The position numbers were made by a program, and so were the translations under genes. A DNA stretch of 55,294 nt from Candidatus Poribacteria bacterium (GTDB lineage: Bacteria; Poribacteria; WGA-4E; WGA-3G). Location: positions 1 through 55,294 of the forward strand of contig JAJDWI010000166.1 in the NCBI GenBank assembly GCA_022825665.1. Direction: 5' to 3'. Below, piece by piece: positions 1,099 to 8,889 of the stretch (position 1 is the stretch's first letter; each line of letters opens with the position of its first letter). Under the pieces are notes generated by a model. It saw nothing but the letters and a program-made list of their open reading frames with translations. It was not told the DNA's origin and did not search any database.

Positions 1099-1809
1099 AT
1101 GCGTTTTGTAATCTGTTTAATACTGATGCTGTGTGTCTGTACAGTTTCTGCTGACATACTTTTTCAAGATGACTTTGAGAGTGGTAAAGTTGATAACAAG
1201 AAATGGATGCCGCAAGGTACTTGGGTGATTGAGGACAATGGTGACGGTCACGATGTTCTCGGTGAAAAAGTGCTTGCTGTCCAAAGTAGTGAGATAGGTC
1301 TTAGTGTTGATGCGTTTCCCGAAGAATTTGATTATTACGCTGATTTTAAAACAGTGTCGGCGGGTTTGACAGGTTTTGTTTTCCACGCACAAGACGCTAA
1401 TAATGTATATATGCACCAAGTTTCAACGGCTGGTTCAGCACATACACCACAACACATCCGTTGGCATAGGAAAGTAGGTGGTGGATATACAGTTGATGCC
1501 AAACCCTTTGACGATAAGGTAAATCGCGACCAAAATGTATGGTATCGTGTTAAGTTTGAGGTGCGTAAGGACTATAAGTTTAAAGTCTATCTTGGGGATG
1601 TTGGCGTAGAAGACGATGAACTTACACTTGTCAGTGAATGGACAGATGCTCAAAAATCATTTGAGAAGGGTAAAATAGGTATACGGATGAGTGGAGGTGA
1701 GCGCGCCCAATATGACAACATTGTTGTATCTTCTGCAGGATTCGACATTTTTTCTGTTGAACCAAATGGGAAGTTAACCCTAACTTGGGGAAACCTTAAA
1801 CGTAAATAA
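1099..1809 (+). CDS. Secreted LamG/DUF1080-like beta-sandwich protein (paralogue A)
   Basis: This 236-residue protein has a signal peptide (residues 1-18, ending VSA). It also has a single concanavalin-like jelly-roll of the LamG/3-keto-disaccharide-hydrolase (DUF1080) type. Seen features are the opening ILFQDDFE, a central GFVFHAQD and WYRVKFEV, and the closing YDNIVV strand. I do not identify catalytic residues, so a glycan-binding role is as likely as hydrolysis. It is about two-thirds identical by eye to the protein at 2018-2728, so the pair is a tandem duplication. The C-terminus VEPNGKLTLTWGNLKRK is shared with its neighbours. The ribosome site AAGGAGAT precedes the ATG. Confidence 0.7.
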   Translation: MRFVICLILMLCVCTVSADILFQDDFESGKVDNKKWMPQGTWVIEDNGDGHDVLGEKVLAVQSSEIGLSVDAFPEEFDYYADFKTVSAGLTGFVFHAQDANNVYMHQVSTAGSAHTPQHIRWHRKVGGGYTVDAKPFDDKVNRDQNVWYRVKFEVRKDYKFKVYLGDVGVEDDELTLVSEWTDAQKSFEKGKIGIRMSGGERAQYDNIVVSSAGFDIFSVEPNGKLTLTWGNLKRK

Positions 1810-2017: not shown

Positions 2018-2728
2018 ATGCGATATTTAATCTGTTTAGCAATGATTCTGTGTGTTTCCACAGTTTCTGCTGAAATATTGTTTTATGATGATTTTGAAAA
2101 TGGTGAGATTGATGAATCTATGTGGGCACCACAAGGTACTTGGGTGATTCAAGATAATTCTGATGGTCACGATGTATTAGGTGATAGTGTTCTATTCGTT
2201 CCAGGGGGTGAGGTTGGACTTAGCGTTGACGAATTCCCAGAAGAATACGACTATTACGCGGATTTCAAAGCCACGCAGAATGGTTTAAGTGGGTTCGTCT
2301 TCCACGCTCAGGACGCAAATAACATATACATGCATCAAGTTTCTACAGATGGTTCAGCACATACACCACAACATATCCGTTGGCATAGAAGGGTTAATGG
2401 TGGATGGGCTGCTGAACCTGGGGCATTTGAAGATGGCGTTGATCGTAAAGCGAATGTGTGGTACAGAGCGAAATTTGAGGTGCGGTCAGGTTCCAATTTC
2501 AAGGCTTACATAGGACCCGTAGGCGGTGATTCTGACGAATTATCTTTTGTAAGTGAATGGACAGATTCACAGGGAGCCTTTTCAAGTGGGAAAATCGGTT
2601 TCCGTATGAGTGGTGCAGAACATGCACAGTACGATAATATTGCTGTCGTAACACCAGGAGGAACCCCGACACCTGTTGAACCGAAAGATAAGATGGCAGT
2701 GACTTGGGGCAACTTAAAACGTCAATAA
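2018..2728 (+). CDS. Secreted LamG/DUF1080-like beta-sandwich protein (paralogue B)
   Basis: This 236-residue secreted protein has the same length, signal peptide and fold as the product of 1099-1809. Conserved blocks include QGTWVI, GFVFHAQDANN, HTPQHIRWHR and YDNI. The divergence lies mostly in surface-like charged segments, consistent with duplication followed by drift. The tail VEPKDKMAVTWGNLKRQ matches the other two secreted proteins. A ribosome site (AAGGAGAT) precedes the ATG. Its stop codon TAA (2726-2728) touches the next reading frame, so translation may be coupled to the oxidoreductase. Function is unknown; carbohydrate binding is a family-based guess. Confidence 0.7.
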   Translation: MRYLICLAMILCVSTVSAEILFYDDFENGEIDESMWAPQGTWVIQDNSDGHDVLGDSVLFVPGGEVGLSVDEFPEEYDYYADFKATQNGLSGFVFHAQDANNIYMHQVSTDGSAHTPQHIRWHRRVNGGWAAEPGAFEDGVDRKANVWYRAKFEVRSGSNFKAYIGPVGGDSDELSFVSEWTDSQGAFSSGKIGFRMSGAEHAQYDNIAVVTPGGTPTPVEPKDKMAVTWGNLKRQ

Positions 2729-2766
2729 TGCAGAATCAACGCTCTGCTCAGGAAGGAAATGGTGAT

Positions 2767-3762
2767 ATGTCATTATCTATCGGCATCATCGGTGCAGGTA
2801 GGATGGGTGGGCATCACCATAGTGCGGTAACTAACTATGGCGCACGTATAGTTGCTGTTCACGATGTCCGAATAGAAGCCGCACAAGAACTTGCCTCAAT
2901 TGCCAATGCCGAAATTGCTACTGATGTGTTGAGTGATTTTTTTGATTTAAAATTAGACGGGGTGGTGATAACAACGCCACCCCCTGTTCGTTTAGAGCCA
3001 ATCAAGAAGGCTTGTGAACGTGGCATCTCAATAATGGTAGAAAAACCACCTGCCCTGAATATTTCTGATGGACGTAAATGTCTTGAATATATCGTAAATG
3101 CTGATGTCATCGCAGCAGTTGGTTTTCAACTCAGATATCACCCTCTGTATGAGAGACTAAAAGAATTAATCGCTAATCAGGCTATCCATCTGGTTAGAAC
3201 AGTCTGTACTATTAACTACTATCTCACATTTCAAATGCCAACATGGTTCTTACAGTCAGAGATTAGCGGTGGACCATTAGCAGAACAGGCTGTGCATGTG
3301 TTAGACTGTGCTCGATATGTAATGGGAAACCCGAAACCCTTGCAAGCACATGCTTTGACTGTAAAAAATATGGCACTTGACCGTACAGAATTTGACGCTG
3401 AAAATGCTATACAGATGACTTATGAATTAGACAATGGAGTATTCGGAACGCATATGAATCATTGCGGTACAGAGGAATTCTGTTTTGATGTTGAGGTGGT
3501 CGGACCGCATTTACGTCTGCAGGCAAATATGGCGGATAATGCAATTCGTGGTTATCTCAATGGTGAAAAGATAGATGAACCCGTTATATCACAAAACAGT
3601 ATAGGTTTAGACAAGACTGGAGCGTGGTTGCGTGCAATTGAAACTGGGGATAGAACACTCATTCGTTCCCATTTTGCTGACGCACTTGAAACACTTAAAC
3701 TAATAGATGCGGCTATAAAAAGTCGCAATACTGGTAAATTTATTAGGGTGGAGGAATTATGA
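2767..3762 (+). CDS. Gfo/Idh/MocA-family NAD(P)-dependent oxidoreductase
   Basis: The 331-residue protein has an N-terminal Rossmann motif, GIIGAGRMGGHH (residues about 6-17), and the family's EKP block (VEKPPA, near residue 95). These mark a sugar or inositol dehydrogenase-like enzyme that uses NAD(P). The substrate cannot be read from the sequence. I place the start at 2767, not the in-frame upstream ATG at 2728. GGAAGGAAATGGTGAT lies just before 2767 and the Rossmann strand begins four residues after it. The stop codon TGA overlaps the ATG of the following selenoprotein gene (ATGA), pointing to co-translation. Confidence 0.85.
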   Translation: MSLSIGIIGAGRMGGHHHSAVTNYGARIVAVHDVRIEAAQELASIANAEIATDVLSDFFDLKLDGVVITTPPPVRLEPIKKACERGISIMVEKPPALNISDGRKCLEYIVNADVIAAVGFQLRYHPLYERLKELIANQAIHLVRTVCTINYYLTFQMPTWFLQSEISGGPLAEQAVHVLDCARYVMGNPKPLQAHALTVKNMALDRTEFDAENAIQMTYELDNGVFGTHMNHCGTEEFCFDVEVVGPHLRLQANMADNAIRGYLNGEKIDEPVISQNSIGLDKTGAWLRAIETGDRTLIRSHFADALETLKLIDAAIKSRNTGKFIRVEEL

Positions 3763-4106
3763 TGATAGACTGGATCTATTTTAGAAAAGGTTGAAACTCC
3801 TGTAAAAAAGTTCAAGAGGTTCTTGACACAAACAACATACAAGCAGAAAACCGATCAGATGCACGAAAAGATAAACTTGAAGCAGATGCAGTATGGGAAA
3901 AAATGGGTTCTGCAGAGCAGATTGTTGTCGCTAAAGGTAAGAAGATAGAAACCTTTATACCAAACGACGATACCCGTGATGATGTTCTGAATGTAGTCCT
4001 CGGACGTAGTGGCAGCCTACGTGCACCAACTGTGCAAATCGGAAATGTATTCTATGTAGGATACAACGATACCATCTATTCTGAACCACCCTTCGGAAGT
4101 GGATAG
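3759..4106 (+). CDS. Probable UxxC selenoprotein, ArsC/thioredoxin-fold family
   Basis: One reading frame runs from ATG 3759 to TAG 4106 with a single in-frame TGA at 3792-3794. Read as selenocysteine, the 115-residue product begins MMIDWIYFRKG-U-NSCKK. That is a thioredoxin-fold strand followed by a U-x-x-C redox pair (U12, C15). The rest resembles ArsC/Spx-type proteins: a helical middle (QEVLDTNNIQ), then GRSGSLRAPTVQIG near residue 85, matching the family's conserved R..LRAP segment. A hairpin fitting a bacterial SECIS element lies 3812-3826. The ATG overlaps the upstream oxidoreductase stop and has a good ribosome site (GGTGGAGG). It is probably a small thiol/selenol oxidoreductase. The alternative is a gene with a nonsense mutation, but the TGA sits exactly at the redox position, which argues against that. 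Confidence 0.75.
3812..3826 (+). promoter_or_regulatory. SECIS-like hairpin downstream of the in-frame TGA
   Basis: TCAAGA (3812-3817) pairs with TCTTGA (3821-3826) around the loop GGT (3818-3820). Twenty-three bases separate the TGA (3792-3794) from the loop guanine. Known bacterial SECIS elements have a short stem with G at the start of a small apical loop about 16-37 bases after UGA, so both distance and loop fit. The stem is only six pairs and has not been folded computationally. Confidence 0.6.
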
Positions 4107-4117
4107 AGTAAACACCA

Positions 4118-4882
4118 ATGCCTATTGAAAAGATACTTATTACTGGTGCTGCAGGATATCTTGCCCAGTTTATAATTGATCGGTTGCACACATCATATCA
4201 ATTAACGCTTACCGATATTGTTGAGCCTAAGAAAGATTATGATGGAATACCATTTATTCAGGCTGACGTTACACATGCGTCTGAGATTGAAGCAGCGTGT
4301 GTTGATCAAGATGCTGTCGTGCACACCGTTGCATTAGTACGCGAACGGCACGGCAAACCTAACACATTGTTTGCAGATGTGATGGTGAAGGGAACATGGA
4401 ACGTCGCTGAGGCATGTGTTAGGCAGGGAGTACAGAAGTTGGTAAACATCTCCAGTATTTCGGCATGTCCACCTGCACCTGGTGTCCAGTTACCATATCA
4501 AGTTGATAAGCCGTTTCGATTCGGTGGAGGTGACCTTAATTATGCATTGGCGAAATATCTCGGTGAGCAGATAGGTTTAGCCTACCATCAAGCACACGGT
4601 TTGAAGGTAATTCATATCCGTCCGGGTGTAATTGATGGAGATGGAATGAACCCCGGTCCTTCAGCACCTGAGACTGTTACAGAACCCTGGTTCGTTTATG
4701 TAGATCCGAGGGATGTTGCACAATGTGTTGCACGTGCCATTGAAACTGAACATGTGAATTATGGTGCATACAACGCAGTAGCAGGTCGATCAGACTCGAG
4801 ATATGACTGGAAACAAGCAAAACAGGATTTAGGATATTCCCCAGAACACAACTGGGATGAGATTCCGGTTAACGAACCGTAG
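4118..4882 (+). CDS. NAD-dependent epimerase/dehydratase (extended SDR)
   Basis: The 254-residue protein carries the nucleotide-binding motif GAAGYLA (residues about 8-14). A VNISS strand follows, and then the catalytic YxxxK as YALAK (near residue 147), all typical of sugar-nucleotide epimerases and dehydratases. The late segment IRPGVIDG is also typical. It is somewhat short for an extended SDR (usually about 300 residues), mainly at the C-terminal substrate domain. It follows the selenoprotein by 11 bases and probably belongs to the same transcript. The substrate is not predictable. Confidence 0.8.
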   Translation: MPIEKILITGAAGYLAQFIIDRLHTSYQLTLTDIVEPKKDYDGIPFIQADVTHASEIEAACVDQDAVVHTVALVRERHGKPNTLFADVMVKGTWNVAEACVRQGVQKLVNISSISACPPAPGVQLPYQVDKPFRFGGGDLNYALAKYLGEQIGLAYHQAHGLKVIHIRPGVIDGDGMNPGPSAPETVTEPWFVYVDPRDVAQCVARAIETEHVNYGAYNAVAGRSDSRYDWKQAKQDLGYSPEHNWDEIPVNEP

Positions 4883-4890
4883 AGGTGCTT

Positions 4891-6321
4891 ATGACTTTTC
4901 AAAAAGACTCAGTTGATTCGCGGTCCGATAATCTACGTGCCGATATTACAAAGTTTGACACAGAACTCGCTGAAGATTTCAAATCACAAATGTCTATTGC
5001 TCCATTCTTGTCTCGCAAGATTGTAAGTTTTCAAGGAAACAAGTCGAAGCCAGCATATAATTGGTATAAATATAAAGAAGCATATTCTGCAGGACTTGTT
5101 GAATATTTTTTGAGTAATTATGAAGGTGGTACTCAAGGGAAGGTACTTGATCCTTTCGCTGGGATAGGAACAACCTTGTTTGCAGCAAGTGAACAAGATA
5201 TTCACGCTGATGGAATAGAATTATTACCTATTGGACAAGAAATTATCCAATCACGAATTATGTTGCAAAAGGGTTTGTCCACAAATGATACAGATAAGCT
5301 TGAATGGTGGATAAGTTCTCAGCCGTGGAAAGGATATCCGGAAAGAATTCCATTTAGTACGTTTCGGATTACAGAAGGTGCTTACCCATCCGATACAGTA
5401 GAGTCAATAGAACGGTACAGAGGTGCGATGCATCGAGAAAGCGAAAAAATACAAGCAATTCTTCGTCTTGCTTTGTTGTGTGTGTTAGAATCGGTAAGTT
5501 ATACGCGTAAAGATGGACAATATTTGCGATGGGATGCGCGTTCTGGCAAGATACGACCCGGGACAAAGCCTTTCGATAAAGGAGAAATCCTTTCCTTCGA
5601 TTTTGCAATAATCGCTAAATTAAAAGAGATTTTATCATATATAACTTCTCATCAAACACCTATAACACTTTTCCCTATACTTCATACAGAAAGCAATATA
5701 AGGTTGTTCCCGGGTTCATGTTTAGAGATTTTACCTGCCTTAGAAACGGAATCGTATACTGCTATCATGACTTCACCTCCATACTGCAACCGATACGATT
5801 ATACACGTACGTATGCGCTTGAATTGGCAATGTTAGGTTTGACACATGAGGATGTCTGTAGTTTAAGACAAGAAATGCTTAGCTGTACGGTAGAAAATAG
5901 AGAGAAGAATTTATTGAATATTAATCCAAAATGGGAACCATATATAGATACTGCAAACAATCAGAAATTACTAAATTCAATCAATACATATCTGGAAAAC
6001 GAAAAGTCGTGTGGCAGGTTAAATAACAACAGTATACCCAGAATGGTTCGCGGATATTTTTCTGAAATGGCATGTGTTATTGGGGAATGTTTCCGTGTGC
6101 TAAAACCGAATGCCCGTCTTTTCATGGTAAACGACAATGTTCGCTACGCAGGTATTGGCATTTCCGTTGACCTAATTTTATCGGATATAGCAAGAACGGT
6201 AGGTTTTGAGGTTGAAAAAATCCTCGTGGTCCCTAGTAAAAAGGGGAATAGCAGTCAGCAAATGGGAATGTATGGTCGTATACCTCTTCGCAAATGTGTG
6301 TATGTTTGGAGAAGAAGATAA
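4891..6321 (+). CDS. Type II DNA methyltransferase of the AvaI/BsoBI-type system
   Basis: The 476-residue protein has the AdoMet-binding motif I (DPFAGIGTT, near residue 88) and the catalytic motif IV TSPPY (near residue 294). The roughly 200 residues between them leave room for target recognition. TSPPY methylases modify the exocyclic amino group of cytosine or adenine. Because the next gene encodes an AvaI/BsoBI-type nuclease, protection of CYCGRG is inferred, with N4-methylcytosine most likely. An upstream in-frame GTG at 4885 is possible, but AGAGG at 4881-4885 is better placed for the ATG at 4891. The stop codon overlaps the nuclease start (TAATG). Sites CCCGGG at 5557 and 5709 lie within the gene itself. 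Confidence 0.85.
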   Translation: MTFQKDSVDSRSDNLRADITKFDTELAEDFKSQMSIAPFLSRKIVSFQGNKSKPAYNWYKYKEAYSAGLVEYFLSNYEGGTQGKVLDPFAGIGTTLFAASEQDIHADGIELLPIGQEIIQSRIMLQKGLSTNDTDKLEWWISSQPWKGYPERIPFSTFRITEGAYPSDTVESIERYRGAMHRESEKIQAILRLALLCVLESVSYTRKDGQYLRWDARSGKIRPGTKPFDKGEILSFDFAIIAKLKEILSYITSHQTPITLFPILHTESNIRLFPGSCLEILPALETESYTAIMTSPPYCNRYDYTRTYALELAMLGLTHEDVCSLRQEMLSCTVENREKNLLNINPKWEPYIDTANNQKLLNSINTYLENEKSCGRLNNNSIPRMVRGYFSEMACVIGECFRVLKPNARLFMVNDNVRYAGIGISVDLILSDIARTVGFEVEKILVVPSKKGNSSQQMGMYGRIPLRKCVYVWRRR

Positions 6322-7268
6322 TGTCATATATCCAACACTTATCTTGTAGTACTGACTTGATTACCCCGACTGAGGAAATTCGTTCTGGTTTTGTTACTCT
6401 TGCATTGGAAAGAAATAGACAAGCTACTCCTTTTGTTGAACAAGCAAGGGCATTGAGGGTTTTTGCAATGCAAGCCAAAACCCCTACTGAATTACTTCAA
6501 ATTGATGAAATTAGACCTGCGTTATTGACAGCTGCAGGATTTTCGGATAAGGCGGTTAGATATACAGATGAAGTTAGCCAATCGACGGCAATAGAACTAT
6601 TAATAGAGAATTTTTTAGAACCTGCAGGTACAGAATTTGTCAAGGAATTAGTTTACCGATTTCTGTTAACACGTGGGGATTCGTTAGGAGGGTCCATGCG
6701 AAACATCGCGGGTAAGTTAGCGGAAAGAAAAGTAACCAGATCAATCATTTCTGCACTAACGTTAACCGAGACAACGTTTCAGTGGCTTAACACTGTTAGT
6801 AATACATGGATCGCGGGAAAGAAAAGCGAACCAGATATAGAATTGAATGTCAAAGCACTTAGTTGGGTAAGGAATGGGGCAACACGAACACTGATTTACA
6901 ACCGGACTATTCCATTAGTAAGGAAGAATATTGATATATGTCTACTCCACTGTGAACCTGACGAGTTAATACCTGCGACTTTAAGAGTTCCTGAAAAGTA
7001 TATTGCTTTTGGCGAACTGAAAGGTGGAATTGACCCGGCAGGTGCTGACGAACATTGGAAAACTGCACAAACGGCATTAACCCGCATCAGAGCAGCCTTT
7101 TCAGTTGAAAACTTGTTGCCATTCCTCTTTTTTATTGGAGCAGTTATCGTTGACAACATGGCACAGGAAATCTGGAGACATCTTGAAGATAAAACACTGA
7201 TTAACGCAGCTAACTTAACAAACGCTGATCAAGTTGCATCATTATCTAATTGGCTTGTTAGTTTATGA
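6321..7268 (+). CDS. Type II restriction endonuclease, AvaI/BsoBI family
   Basis: The 315-residue protein resembles BsoBI (323 residues) along its whole length, with near-identical blocks such as IENFLEPAG, GDSLGGSMRNIAG and ELKGGIDPAGADEHWKTA. BsoBI uses D212, E240, K242 and H253. The corresponding residues here are D205, E232, K234 and H245, with matching spacing, so the nuclease looks active. Family knowledge gives cleavage at C^YCGRG. The start at 6321 overlaps the methylase stop by one base, so the pair is translationally coupled. No controller gene is visible. Its 3' end overlaps the convergent gene at 7258 by 11 bases. Confidence 0.92.
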   Translation: MSYIQHLSCSTDLITPTEEIRSGFVTLALERNRQATPFVEQARALRVFAMQAKTPTELLQIDEIRPALLTAAGFSDKAVRYTDEVSQSTAIELLIENFLEPAGTEFVKELVYRFLLTRGDSLGGSMRNIAGKLAERKVTRSIISALTLTETTFQWLNTVSNTWIAGKKSEPDIELNVKALSWVRNGATRTLIYNRTIPLVRKNIDICLLHCEPDELIPATLRVPEKYIAFGELKGGIDPAGADEHWKTAQTALTRIRAAFSVENLLPFLFFIGAVIVDNMAQEIWRHLEDKTLINAANLTNADQVASLSNWLVSL

Positions 7269-8889
7269 TTTCAGGATATAATGGGACAACACCAGCATAT
7301 TTCACTCCTGTTAGATATGCGATTTCACGTTTCCAAGTAGTTAGGTCATCAGTGTTGAAGTCGTTCAAATGTATATGTCCACAAGCACGTGCTAAAACCT
7401 GCATCAATTCAACAGATGCAGACAAGAAACGGTTCAACCGTTGCGCTGCTACTTCAACCTTTAATCGTTTGCGTAAATGTTCCTTTTGCGTTGCAATTCC
7501 CACAGGACAGTTATTCGTATGACAGGCTCGCATTCCTATACACCCGATTGCTTGCATTGCAGAATTGGCTATGGCGACTCCATCTGCCCCGAGTGCTAAC
7601 GCTTTGGCAAAATCCGCAGCTGTCCTCAAACCTCCTGTGATAATAAGTGTAATGTCTCCGTTTCCTGTATCATCAAGATATTTGCGTGCCCGTGCTAATG
7701 CTGGCATTGTCGGAACTGAAATATTGTCTCTGAATAACAACGGTGCTGCTCCAGTGCTGCCCCCTCGTCCATCCAATATAATGTAATCCACACCTATTTG
7801 GAATGCAGCATCAATATCCTTTTCAATATGTTGAGCAGATAGCTTAAATCCAATCGGTATGCCACCTGTTTCCTTTCGCACCAAGTCAGCGAATTTGGCA
7901 AAATCGTCAAGGGATTCCCAGTCAGGGAACCGAGCAGGTGAAATAGCTGGTTGCCCTACGGGCAATCTTCTGACAGCAGCAATTTCCTCAGTCACCTTGT
8001 TACCTGGAAGGTGTCCACCTGTACCCGTCTTTGCACCTTGTCCTCCTTTAAAATGAAACGCTTGTGCTTGATCCAATTTGTCGTAAGAGAAACCGAATCG
8101 TGCAGAAGCAAGTTCATAAAAGTAGCGACTGTTTTCCTTTGCCTCTGTAAGTAACATACCCCCTTCACCGGAGCAGATTCCGGTTCCAGCCATTTCAGCA
8201 CCCTTTGCCAACGCTATTTTCGCTTCTGCTGACAACGCGCCAAAACTCATATCGGATACAAAGATAGGTATATCTAATTTGAGGGGTTTTTTCGCATTTG
8301 GACCGATAACCAATTCAGTGCCAACCGCTGTATCGTCAAGATGTGGGGTTTTGTAGAGTTGTGCTACAACAAACTGCAAGTCATCCCAATTGGGTAAGTC
8401 TTTTCTCAGCACACCCATGGCTGCTGTTTGCCCGTGTTGTCCAACATTACTCAATCCATTACTTGCTAATTCCTGAATTTCTGCGACAAAAGGCTCGTCT
8501 TGTGTTCCGTGAATATCTTGGTAGTTTCCCTGATATTGATCACGGTGATAGGGCTGGGGGTTTTCCTTTTCCCACTCACGGATTTCATCTTCGTCAACAT
8601 ATACTGTGTCGTCTTCAATCCATGCCGTGAACTTAGCAAGCCGTTCAGAATTTAGGTATTCGCTTATACCCGTATCATAGCGGTAATCCCAAAAGTGAAC
8701 GCCGCAAATCAGGTTCTCACCTTCAATATAACCGTCTGCAAGCAATGCACCACGATGATGACATCTCCCGTATAGGACAGAAATCTGATTATCATATCGT
8801 ATAATGACTAAATCTACATTTGCAACAAGTCCGTATGCAGGTTCTCTGTCCTTGAGATCGCTGAAGTTAGCGATTTTTGTTTTCGTCAT
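7258..8889 (-). CDS. Rieske [2Fe-2S] domain fused to glutamate-synthase-type FMN domain
   Basis: The 543-residue protein has two modules. Residues about 1-105 form a Rieske domain with both ligand boxes, CHHRG (residue 43) and CGVHFWDY (residue 62). Residues about 160-520 form the FMN-binding glutamate-synthase (GltB central, archaeal type) TIM barrel. This part has SDMSFGALS, GEGGM, KGGQGAKTGTGG, DGRGGSTGAAP and a Cys cluster, CHTNNCPVGIATQ, that would hold an iron-sulphur centre. No glutamine amidotransferase domain is present. The Rieske domain probably delivers electrons to the FMN/Fe-S core, but the reaction, whether glutamate synthesis or another amination, is unproven. Confidence 0.85.
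   Translation of the reverse strand: MTKTKIANFSDLKDREPAYGLVANVDLVIIRYDNQISVLYGRCHHRGALLADGYIEGENLICGVHFWDYRYDTGISEYLNSERLAKFTAWIEDDTVYVDEDEIREWEKENPQPYHRDQYQGNYQDIHGTQDEPFVAEIQELASNGLSNVGQHGQTAAMGVLRKDLPNWDDLQFVVAQLYKTPHLDDTAVGTELVIGPNAKKPLKLDIPIFVSDMSFGALSAEAKIALAKGAEMAGTGICSGEGGMLLTEAKENSRYFYELASARFGFSYDKLDQAQAFHFKGGQGAKTGTGGHLPGNKVTEEIAAVRRLPVGQPAISPARFPDWESLDDFAKFADLVRKETGGIPIGFKLSAQHIEKDIDAAFQIGVDYIILDGRGGSTGAAPLLFRDNISVPTMPALARARKYLDDTGNGDITLIITGGLRTAADFAKALALGADGVAIANSAMQAIGCIGMRACHTNNCPVGIATQKEHLRKRLKVEVAAQRLNRFLSASVELMQVLARACGHIHLNDFNTDDLTTWKREIAYLTGVKYAGVVPLYPEIIN

What the first reader, a model, noticed from the sequence alone, without database searches (positions are those of the whole stretch)
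3759..4106. UxxC selenoprotein of the ArsC/thioredoxin-fold type, with SECIS-like hairpin
Seen: one frame with a single TGA at 3792-3794; U12-N-S-C15 occupies the exact position of a CxxC/CxxS redox site after the first beta strand; the rest of the frame has no other stop and matches the family; a six-pair hairpin with loop GGT lies 23 bases after the TGA. Known: bacterial SECIS elements sit 16-37 bases downstream with G at the loop start. Inference: translation as a selenoprotein, and therefore a Sec insertion pathway (SelA, SelB, SelC, SelD) in this genome. Gene callers would split it or call it a pseudogene.
Basis: partly seen in the sequence, partly recalled or inferred. Interest (0 to 1): 0.85.

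Follow-up and report, generated by a model that had tools for sequence, protein, structure and literature searches.

The report
Known ArsC-like selenoprotein in a Poribacterium
A small redox-protein gene in an uncultured bacterium (Candidatus Poribacteria) carries an in-frame stop codon that is almost certainly read as the rare amino acid selenocysteine; the reading is right, but the protein belongs to an already catalogued selenoprotein family.

Summary
The observation and its reading hold up. Window 3759-4106 (+) is one 115-residue frame with a single TGA at 3792-3794. It scores 121.9 bits (cut-off 85) against NCBIfam NF041106, "ArsC family (seleno)protein". The genome is a Candidatus Poribacteria assembly with selA, selB, selC and a TGA-containing selD.

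Taken alone, the hairpin is unremarkable. Comparative evidence is decisive:
- All 71 Poribacterial copies found carry TGA at that codon.
- The synonymous codons forming the stem (CAA, GAG, CTT, GAC) are frozen in 70 full-length copies while neighbouring conserved codons vary; stem changes include compensatory ones.
- 51 Sec-coding relatives outside Poribacteria keep the hairpin in register, loop starting with G; 13 relatives without the TGA all have Cys there and mostly lack the hairpin.

It is a real selenoprotein, most likely a Sec/Cys thiol-disulfide oxidoreductase of Spx/ArsC-type thioredoxin fold. It is not new in kind: a UxxC "arsenate reductase 2" was reported from ocean metagenomes in 2008 and NF041106 is listed in a 2026 review. 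Added here: all-Sec, near-universal presence in one Poribacterial order. Substrate unknown.

The parts
3759..4106 (+). ArsC-like selenoprotein gene (NF041106), 115 residues with TGA read as Sec; start may be 3762
   Evidence: Translation; NF041106 121.9 bits; 70 other Poribacterial copies with the same TGA
3792..3794 (+). UGA codon for selenocysteine (U12; U11 from the second ATG)
   Evidence: Conserved TGA in all 71 Poribacterial copies; Cys codon in 13 of 13 copies without TGA
3801..3803 (+). Cys15, likely resolving residue of the UxxC motif
   Evidence: C in 70/70 Poribacterial full-length copies; Ser or Ala in some relatives elsewhere
3810..3829 (+). Bacterial SECIS hairpin: stem TCAAGA/TCTTGA plus two pairs beyond a bulge, loop GGT at 3818-3820
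   Evidence: Frozen synonymous codons and compensatory changes; same register in 51 Sec forms, mostly lost in 13 Cys forms
2704..3762 (+). Upstream Gfo/Idh/MocA-type oxidoreductase whose TGA stop overlaps the selenoprotein start; likely same operon
   Evidence: Pfam PF01408 60.1 bits; an upstream match in 56 and a downstream match in 54 of 72 loci searched
4118..4882 (+). Downstream NAD-dependent epimerase/dehydratase, conserved neighbour
   Evidence: Pfam PF01370 79.8 bits; present next to the gene in 54 of 72 loci searched

Best explanation
It is a functional selenoprotein gene. A ribosome reaching UGA 3792-3794 inserts selenocysteine, because SelB carrying Sec-tRNA binds the hairpin whose GGU loop lies 23 bases downstream. 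The product is a one-domain Spx/ArsC-type thioredoxin-fold protein. Its selenol at position 12, at the start of the first helix, attacks a disulfide or similar substrate, and Cys15 resolves the Se-S intermediate, as in a dithiol glutaredoxin. Shown by comparison: Sec at a Cys position, a conserved SECIS, and the Sec machinery in the genome. Inferred: oxidoreductase chemistry and the role of Cys15. Unknown: substrate and electron donor.
For: NF041106 match over full length, 121.9 bits. TGA in all 71 Poribacterial copies. CAA 70/70, GAG 67/67, CTT 70/70, GAC 68/68 in the stem against 42, 40, 11 and 28% usage elsewhere in the same genes; loop GUU or GGU in 70/70; paired changes at 19/36 and 25/29. 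Sec forms keep all five core pairs in 45 of 51, Cys forms one or two in 11 of 13. selA, selB, selC, selD present; selB in 25 of 26 Sec-form genomes and 8 of 13 Cys-form genomes tested. Confident fold model with Spx/ArsC-type relatives.
Against: No experiment. The hairpin alone is not significant by folding energy. Cys15 is missing in some relatives, so the two-residue mechanism is not general. One Sec-form genome (G760, 90% complete) shows no selB.
Confidence: 0.97

Rival explanations
1. Pseudogene or sequencing error: the TGA is a true stop.
For: A stop codon is the default reading of TGA; assemblies are draft MAGs.
Against: Same TGA in 71 separate species-level assemblies, intact frame after it, frozen stem codons, Cys in the TGA-free relatives.
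Confidence: 0.01
2. TGA is reassigned to an ordinary amino acid across the genome (code 4 or 25).
For: One in-frame TGA is read through.
Against: It is the only in-frame TGA in the 55-kb window flanked by strongly coding sequence, and genes such as the upstream one end in TGA. A Sec pathway is present.
Confidence: 0.01
3. On function: it is a true arsenate reductase using Sec as the nucleophile.
For: ArsC-type fold neighbours; family name.
Against: PF03960 12.3 bits, cut-off 24; no hit to the arsenate reductase model TIGR00014; no shared arsenic genes recognised beside it (neighbours compared but not all named).
Confidence: 0.1
4. On function: an Spx-like, RNA-polymerase-binding redox regulator.
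For: Best sequence and fold relatives in the PDB are Spx proteins; 17 of 24 aligned members hit TIGR01617 weakly.
Against: 18.6 bits against the TIGR01617 cut-off of 75 and 13.2 against 123 for Spx. Polymerase-contact residues were not tested.
Confidence: 0.1

Closest known systems
NCBIfam NF041106 ArsC_rel_Se_1, 'ArsC family (seleno)protein'; 'Arsenate reductase-like protein, UxxC' in PMC13188914; probably 'Arsenate reductase 2' of PMC2398784
   Same: Full-length match over cut-off, Sec in UxxC
   Different: Nothing in kind; here the lineage is Poribacteria, where every copy found is the Sec form
UxxS arsenate reductase selenoproteins (TIGR00014 / PF03960 type; PMC1088965)
   Same: Sec at the catalytic Cys position of the ArsC fold
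   Different: UxxC rather than UxxS; not matched by the TIGR00014 model and below the PF03960 cut-off
Spx / YffB (PDB 1z3e, 3gfk, 6ghb, 1rw1)
   Same: Fold, CxxC position and LRxP motif
   Different: Roughly 13-22% identity in fold alignments, Cys instead of Sec, well below family cut-offs

Membership tests
NF041106 (ArsC family (seleno)protein) | Profile score over the curated cut-off, full length | tested here: met
   121.9 bits, cut-off 85, profile 1-107 of 107
NF041106 (ArsC family (seleno)protein) | Sec or Cys at the redox site | tested here: met
   TGA at U12; TGC or TGT in 13 TGA-free relatives
Bacterial selenoproteins | In-frame UGA with a SECIS hairpin downstream, G at the loop start | tested here: met
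   Conserved hairpin, loop GGU or GUU, 23 bases after the UGA
Bacterial selenoproteins | selA, selB, selC, selD in the genome | tested here: met
   All over cut-off
Bacterial selenoproteins | Selenium in the protein | not testable with these tools
   Needs expression or proteomics
Arsenate reductase ArsC (PF03960, TIGR00014) | Profile score over cut-off | tested here: not met
   PF03960 12.3 bits, cut-off 24; TIGR00014 not among hits up to E = 1
Spx/MgsR regulators (TIGR01617) | Profile score over cut-off | tested here: not met
   18.6 bits, cut-off 75.05
Thioredoxin fold, Spx/ArsC branch | Predicted fold matches solved members | tested here: met
   pLDDT 90.6; Spx, ArsC-related proteins and YffB top the PDB list with Foldseek probability 0.96-1.00, though TM is only about 0.5

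The most novel reading that the evidence does not exclude
In Poribacteria this Sec protein has become a fixed part of an operon with a Gfo/Idh/MocA oxidoreductase and an NAD-dependent epimerase, with a lineage-specific task that a Cys form does not fill: no Cys form was seen in 71 copies, whereas the class of G219 holds many of both kinds.
Probability: 0.12. Interest if true: 0.4.

Novelty: new member of a known kind. Interest (0 to 1): 0.22.

Why it matters
It shows that a sequence-only reading of a recoded stop codon was right, and documents selenocysteine use across an order of uncultured bacteria for which no paper in the held library mentions selenoproteins. The paired Sec and Cys forms, with and without the hairpin, make a neat natural test set for SECIS requirements. 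The protein family itself is known, so the surprise for a specialist is small.

Tried and rejected
Single-sequence RNA folding as evidence: not significant, and a loose SECIS rule fits 12% of all TGAs in the window; dropped in favour of comparative tests. Rfam scan of the window: nothing. Gene neighbourhood outside Poribacteria as a clue to substrate: in 20 loci of about 8 kb no neighbour cluster was shared by more than two loci, apart from two five-locus clusters lying at the place of the query gene. Error and pseudogene: rejected by 71 assemblies sharing the TGA. Arsenate reductase and Spx as family names: both below cut-off. A first protein alignment failed because loci were on the other strand.

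Full report
Observation. The stretch 3759-4106 (+) reads as one frame with a single TGA at 3792-3794. The motif is U12-N-S-C15, after the first predicted strand (E3-8) and at the start of the first helix (H13-24). On one sequence it is weak evidence: folding z-score +0.32, and 12% of all TGAs in the window have some hairpin that meets a loose SECIS rule. The in-frame TGA itself is exceptional in the window: a codon-usage scan gives it 23.5, the next best 9.9.

Identity. The protein matches NCBIfam NF041106 'ArsC family (seleno)protein' over its full length at 121.9 bits, cut-off 85. Its close relatives in named contigs are Candidatus Poribacteria assemblies, so the window is Poribacterial. The 71 order-level genomes with a match, own included, all have one TGA in the frame at the same codon; G065 and G069 of that order show no match. 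One copy (G071) is cut short downstream of the TGA. Class-level relatives outside the order show no match.

Sec machinery. The genome has selC (78.1 bits) about 60 bases after selB (353.9), selA (611.8) and selD (362.1), all over cut-off. selD itself carries one in-frame TGA at codon 11 of the matched stretch, which from general knowledge is its usual Sec/Cys site.

SECIS conservation. In 70 Poribacterial genes read in register from the TGA on, the codons that build the stem never vary synonymously: CAA 70/70, GAG 67/67, CTT 70/70, GAC 68/68. Usage of those codons further down the same genes is 42, 40, 11 and 28%. Conserved residues next to the stem do vary, for example Ser14 (TCA 43%) and Cys15 (TGT 60%). 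The loop is GUU or GGU in 70/70. The stem shows paired changes: T-A to C-G at offsets 19/36 and A-T to C-G at 25/29. These counts are of related sequences, not independent events.

Sec against Cys. Outside Poribacteria, loci of several other groups were read. Of 51 Sec forms, 45 keep all five core pairs in the same register, and all loops start with G (45 GUU). In 13 forms without the TGA the codon is TGC or TGT, and 11 keep only one or two core pairs. selB is over cut-off in 25 of 26 Sec-form genomes tested and in 8 of 13 Cys-form genomes. The class of G219 alone holds many copies with and without the TGA. This is what a SECIS kept only where Sec is used should look like.

Fold and function. 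AlphaFold2 gives pLDDT 90.6 and pTM 0.84. Foldseek against the PDB ranks Spx first (E 5e-4), followed by ArsC-related proteins and YffB, with TM about 0.5. The sequence profile agrees: Spx at about 1e-7. Invariant residues in 24 members are W5, Y7, R9, U/C12, G60, G82, G85, L87, R88, P90, G95 and G101. The second Cys is replaced by Ser or Ala in several members of another phylum, so the U/C12 position is the constant one. I infer thiol-disulfide oxidoreductase chemistry with the selenol as nucleophile. Arsenate reduction is unlikely to be the main role: PF03960 is below cut-off. Substrate and electron donor are unknown. In most family-level relatives the gene sits between a Gfo/Idh/MocA oxidoreductase and an NAD-dependent epimerase; the neighbourhood is not kept elsewhere.

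Known or new. A UxxC 'Arsenate reductase 2' was listed from ocean metagenomes in 2008 (PMC2398784). A 2026 review lists 'Arsenate reductase-like protein, NF041106, UxxC' with that paper as source (PMC13188914). No paper held mentions both Poribacteria and selenoproteins. So this is a new member of a known kind, very firmly supported.

Noticed in passing
Phylum of G168, for example G825:C214:3207-3515, G770:C172:553-858, G841:C49:16937-17245: A second, more distant group of TGA-containing relatives (about 27-51 bits, below the NF041106 cut-off), some in genomes that also hold the main form: perhaps a neighbouring ArsC-like selenoprotein family.
   Followed up: no
L062, minus strand (own genome C115:56502-57428): selD of this genome is itself a selenoprotein gene, with one in-frame TGA at codon 11 of the matched stretch.
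   Followed up: partly
window 4885-7268 (+): A DNA methylase (PF01555) followed by a BsoBI-type restriction endonuclease (PF09194, 453.8 bits): an apparently intact type II restriction-modification pair.
   Followed up: partly
window 1099-1809 and 2018-2728 (+): Two tandem secreted-looking paralogues, 65% identical; the first matches the 3-keto-disaccharide hydrolase family, the second no Pfam family at E 0.001.
   Followed up: partly
window 7258-8889 (-): A Rieske domain fused to a glutamate-synthase-type FMN domain in one 543-residue protein.
   Followed up: no
Phylum of G109, for example L139, L142, L143, L145, L147, L154: Family members that keep Sec but have Ser or Ala instead of the second Cys, so they lack the usual resolving residue.
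   Followed up: no
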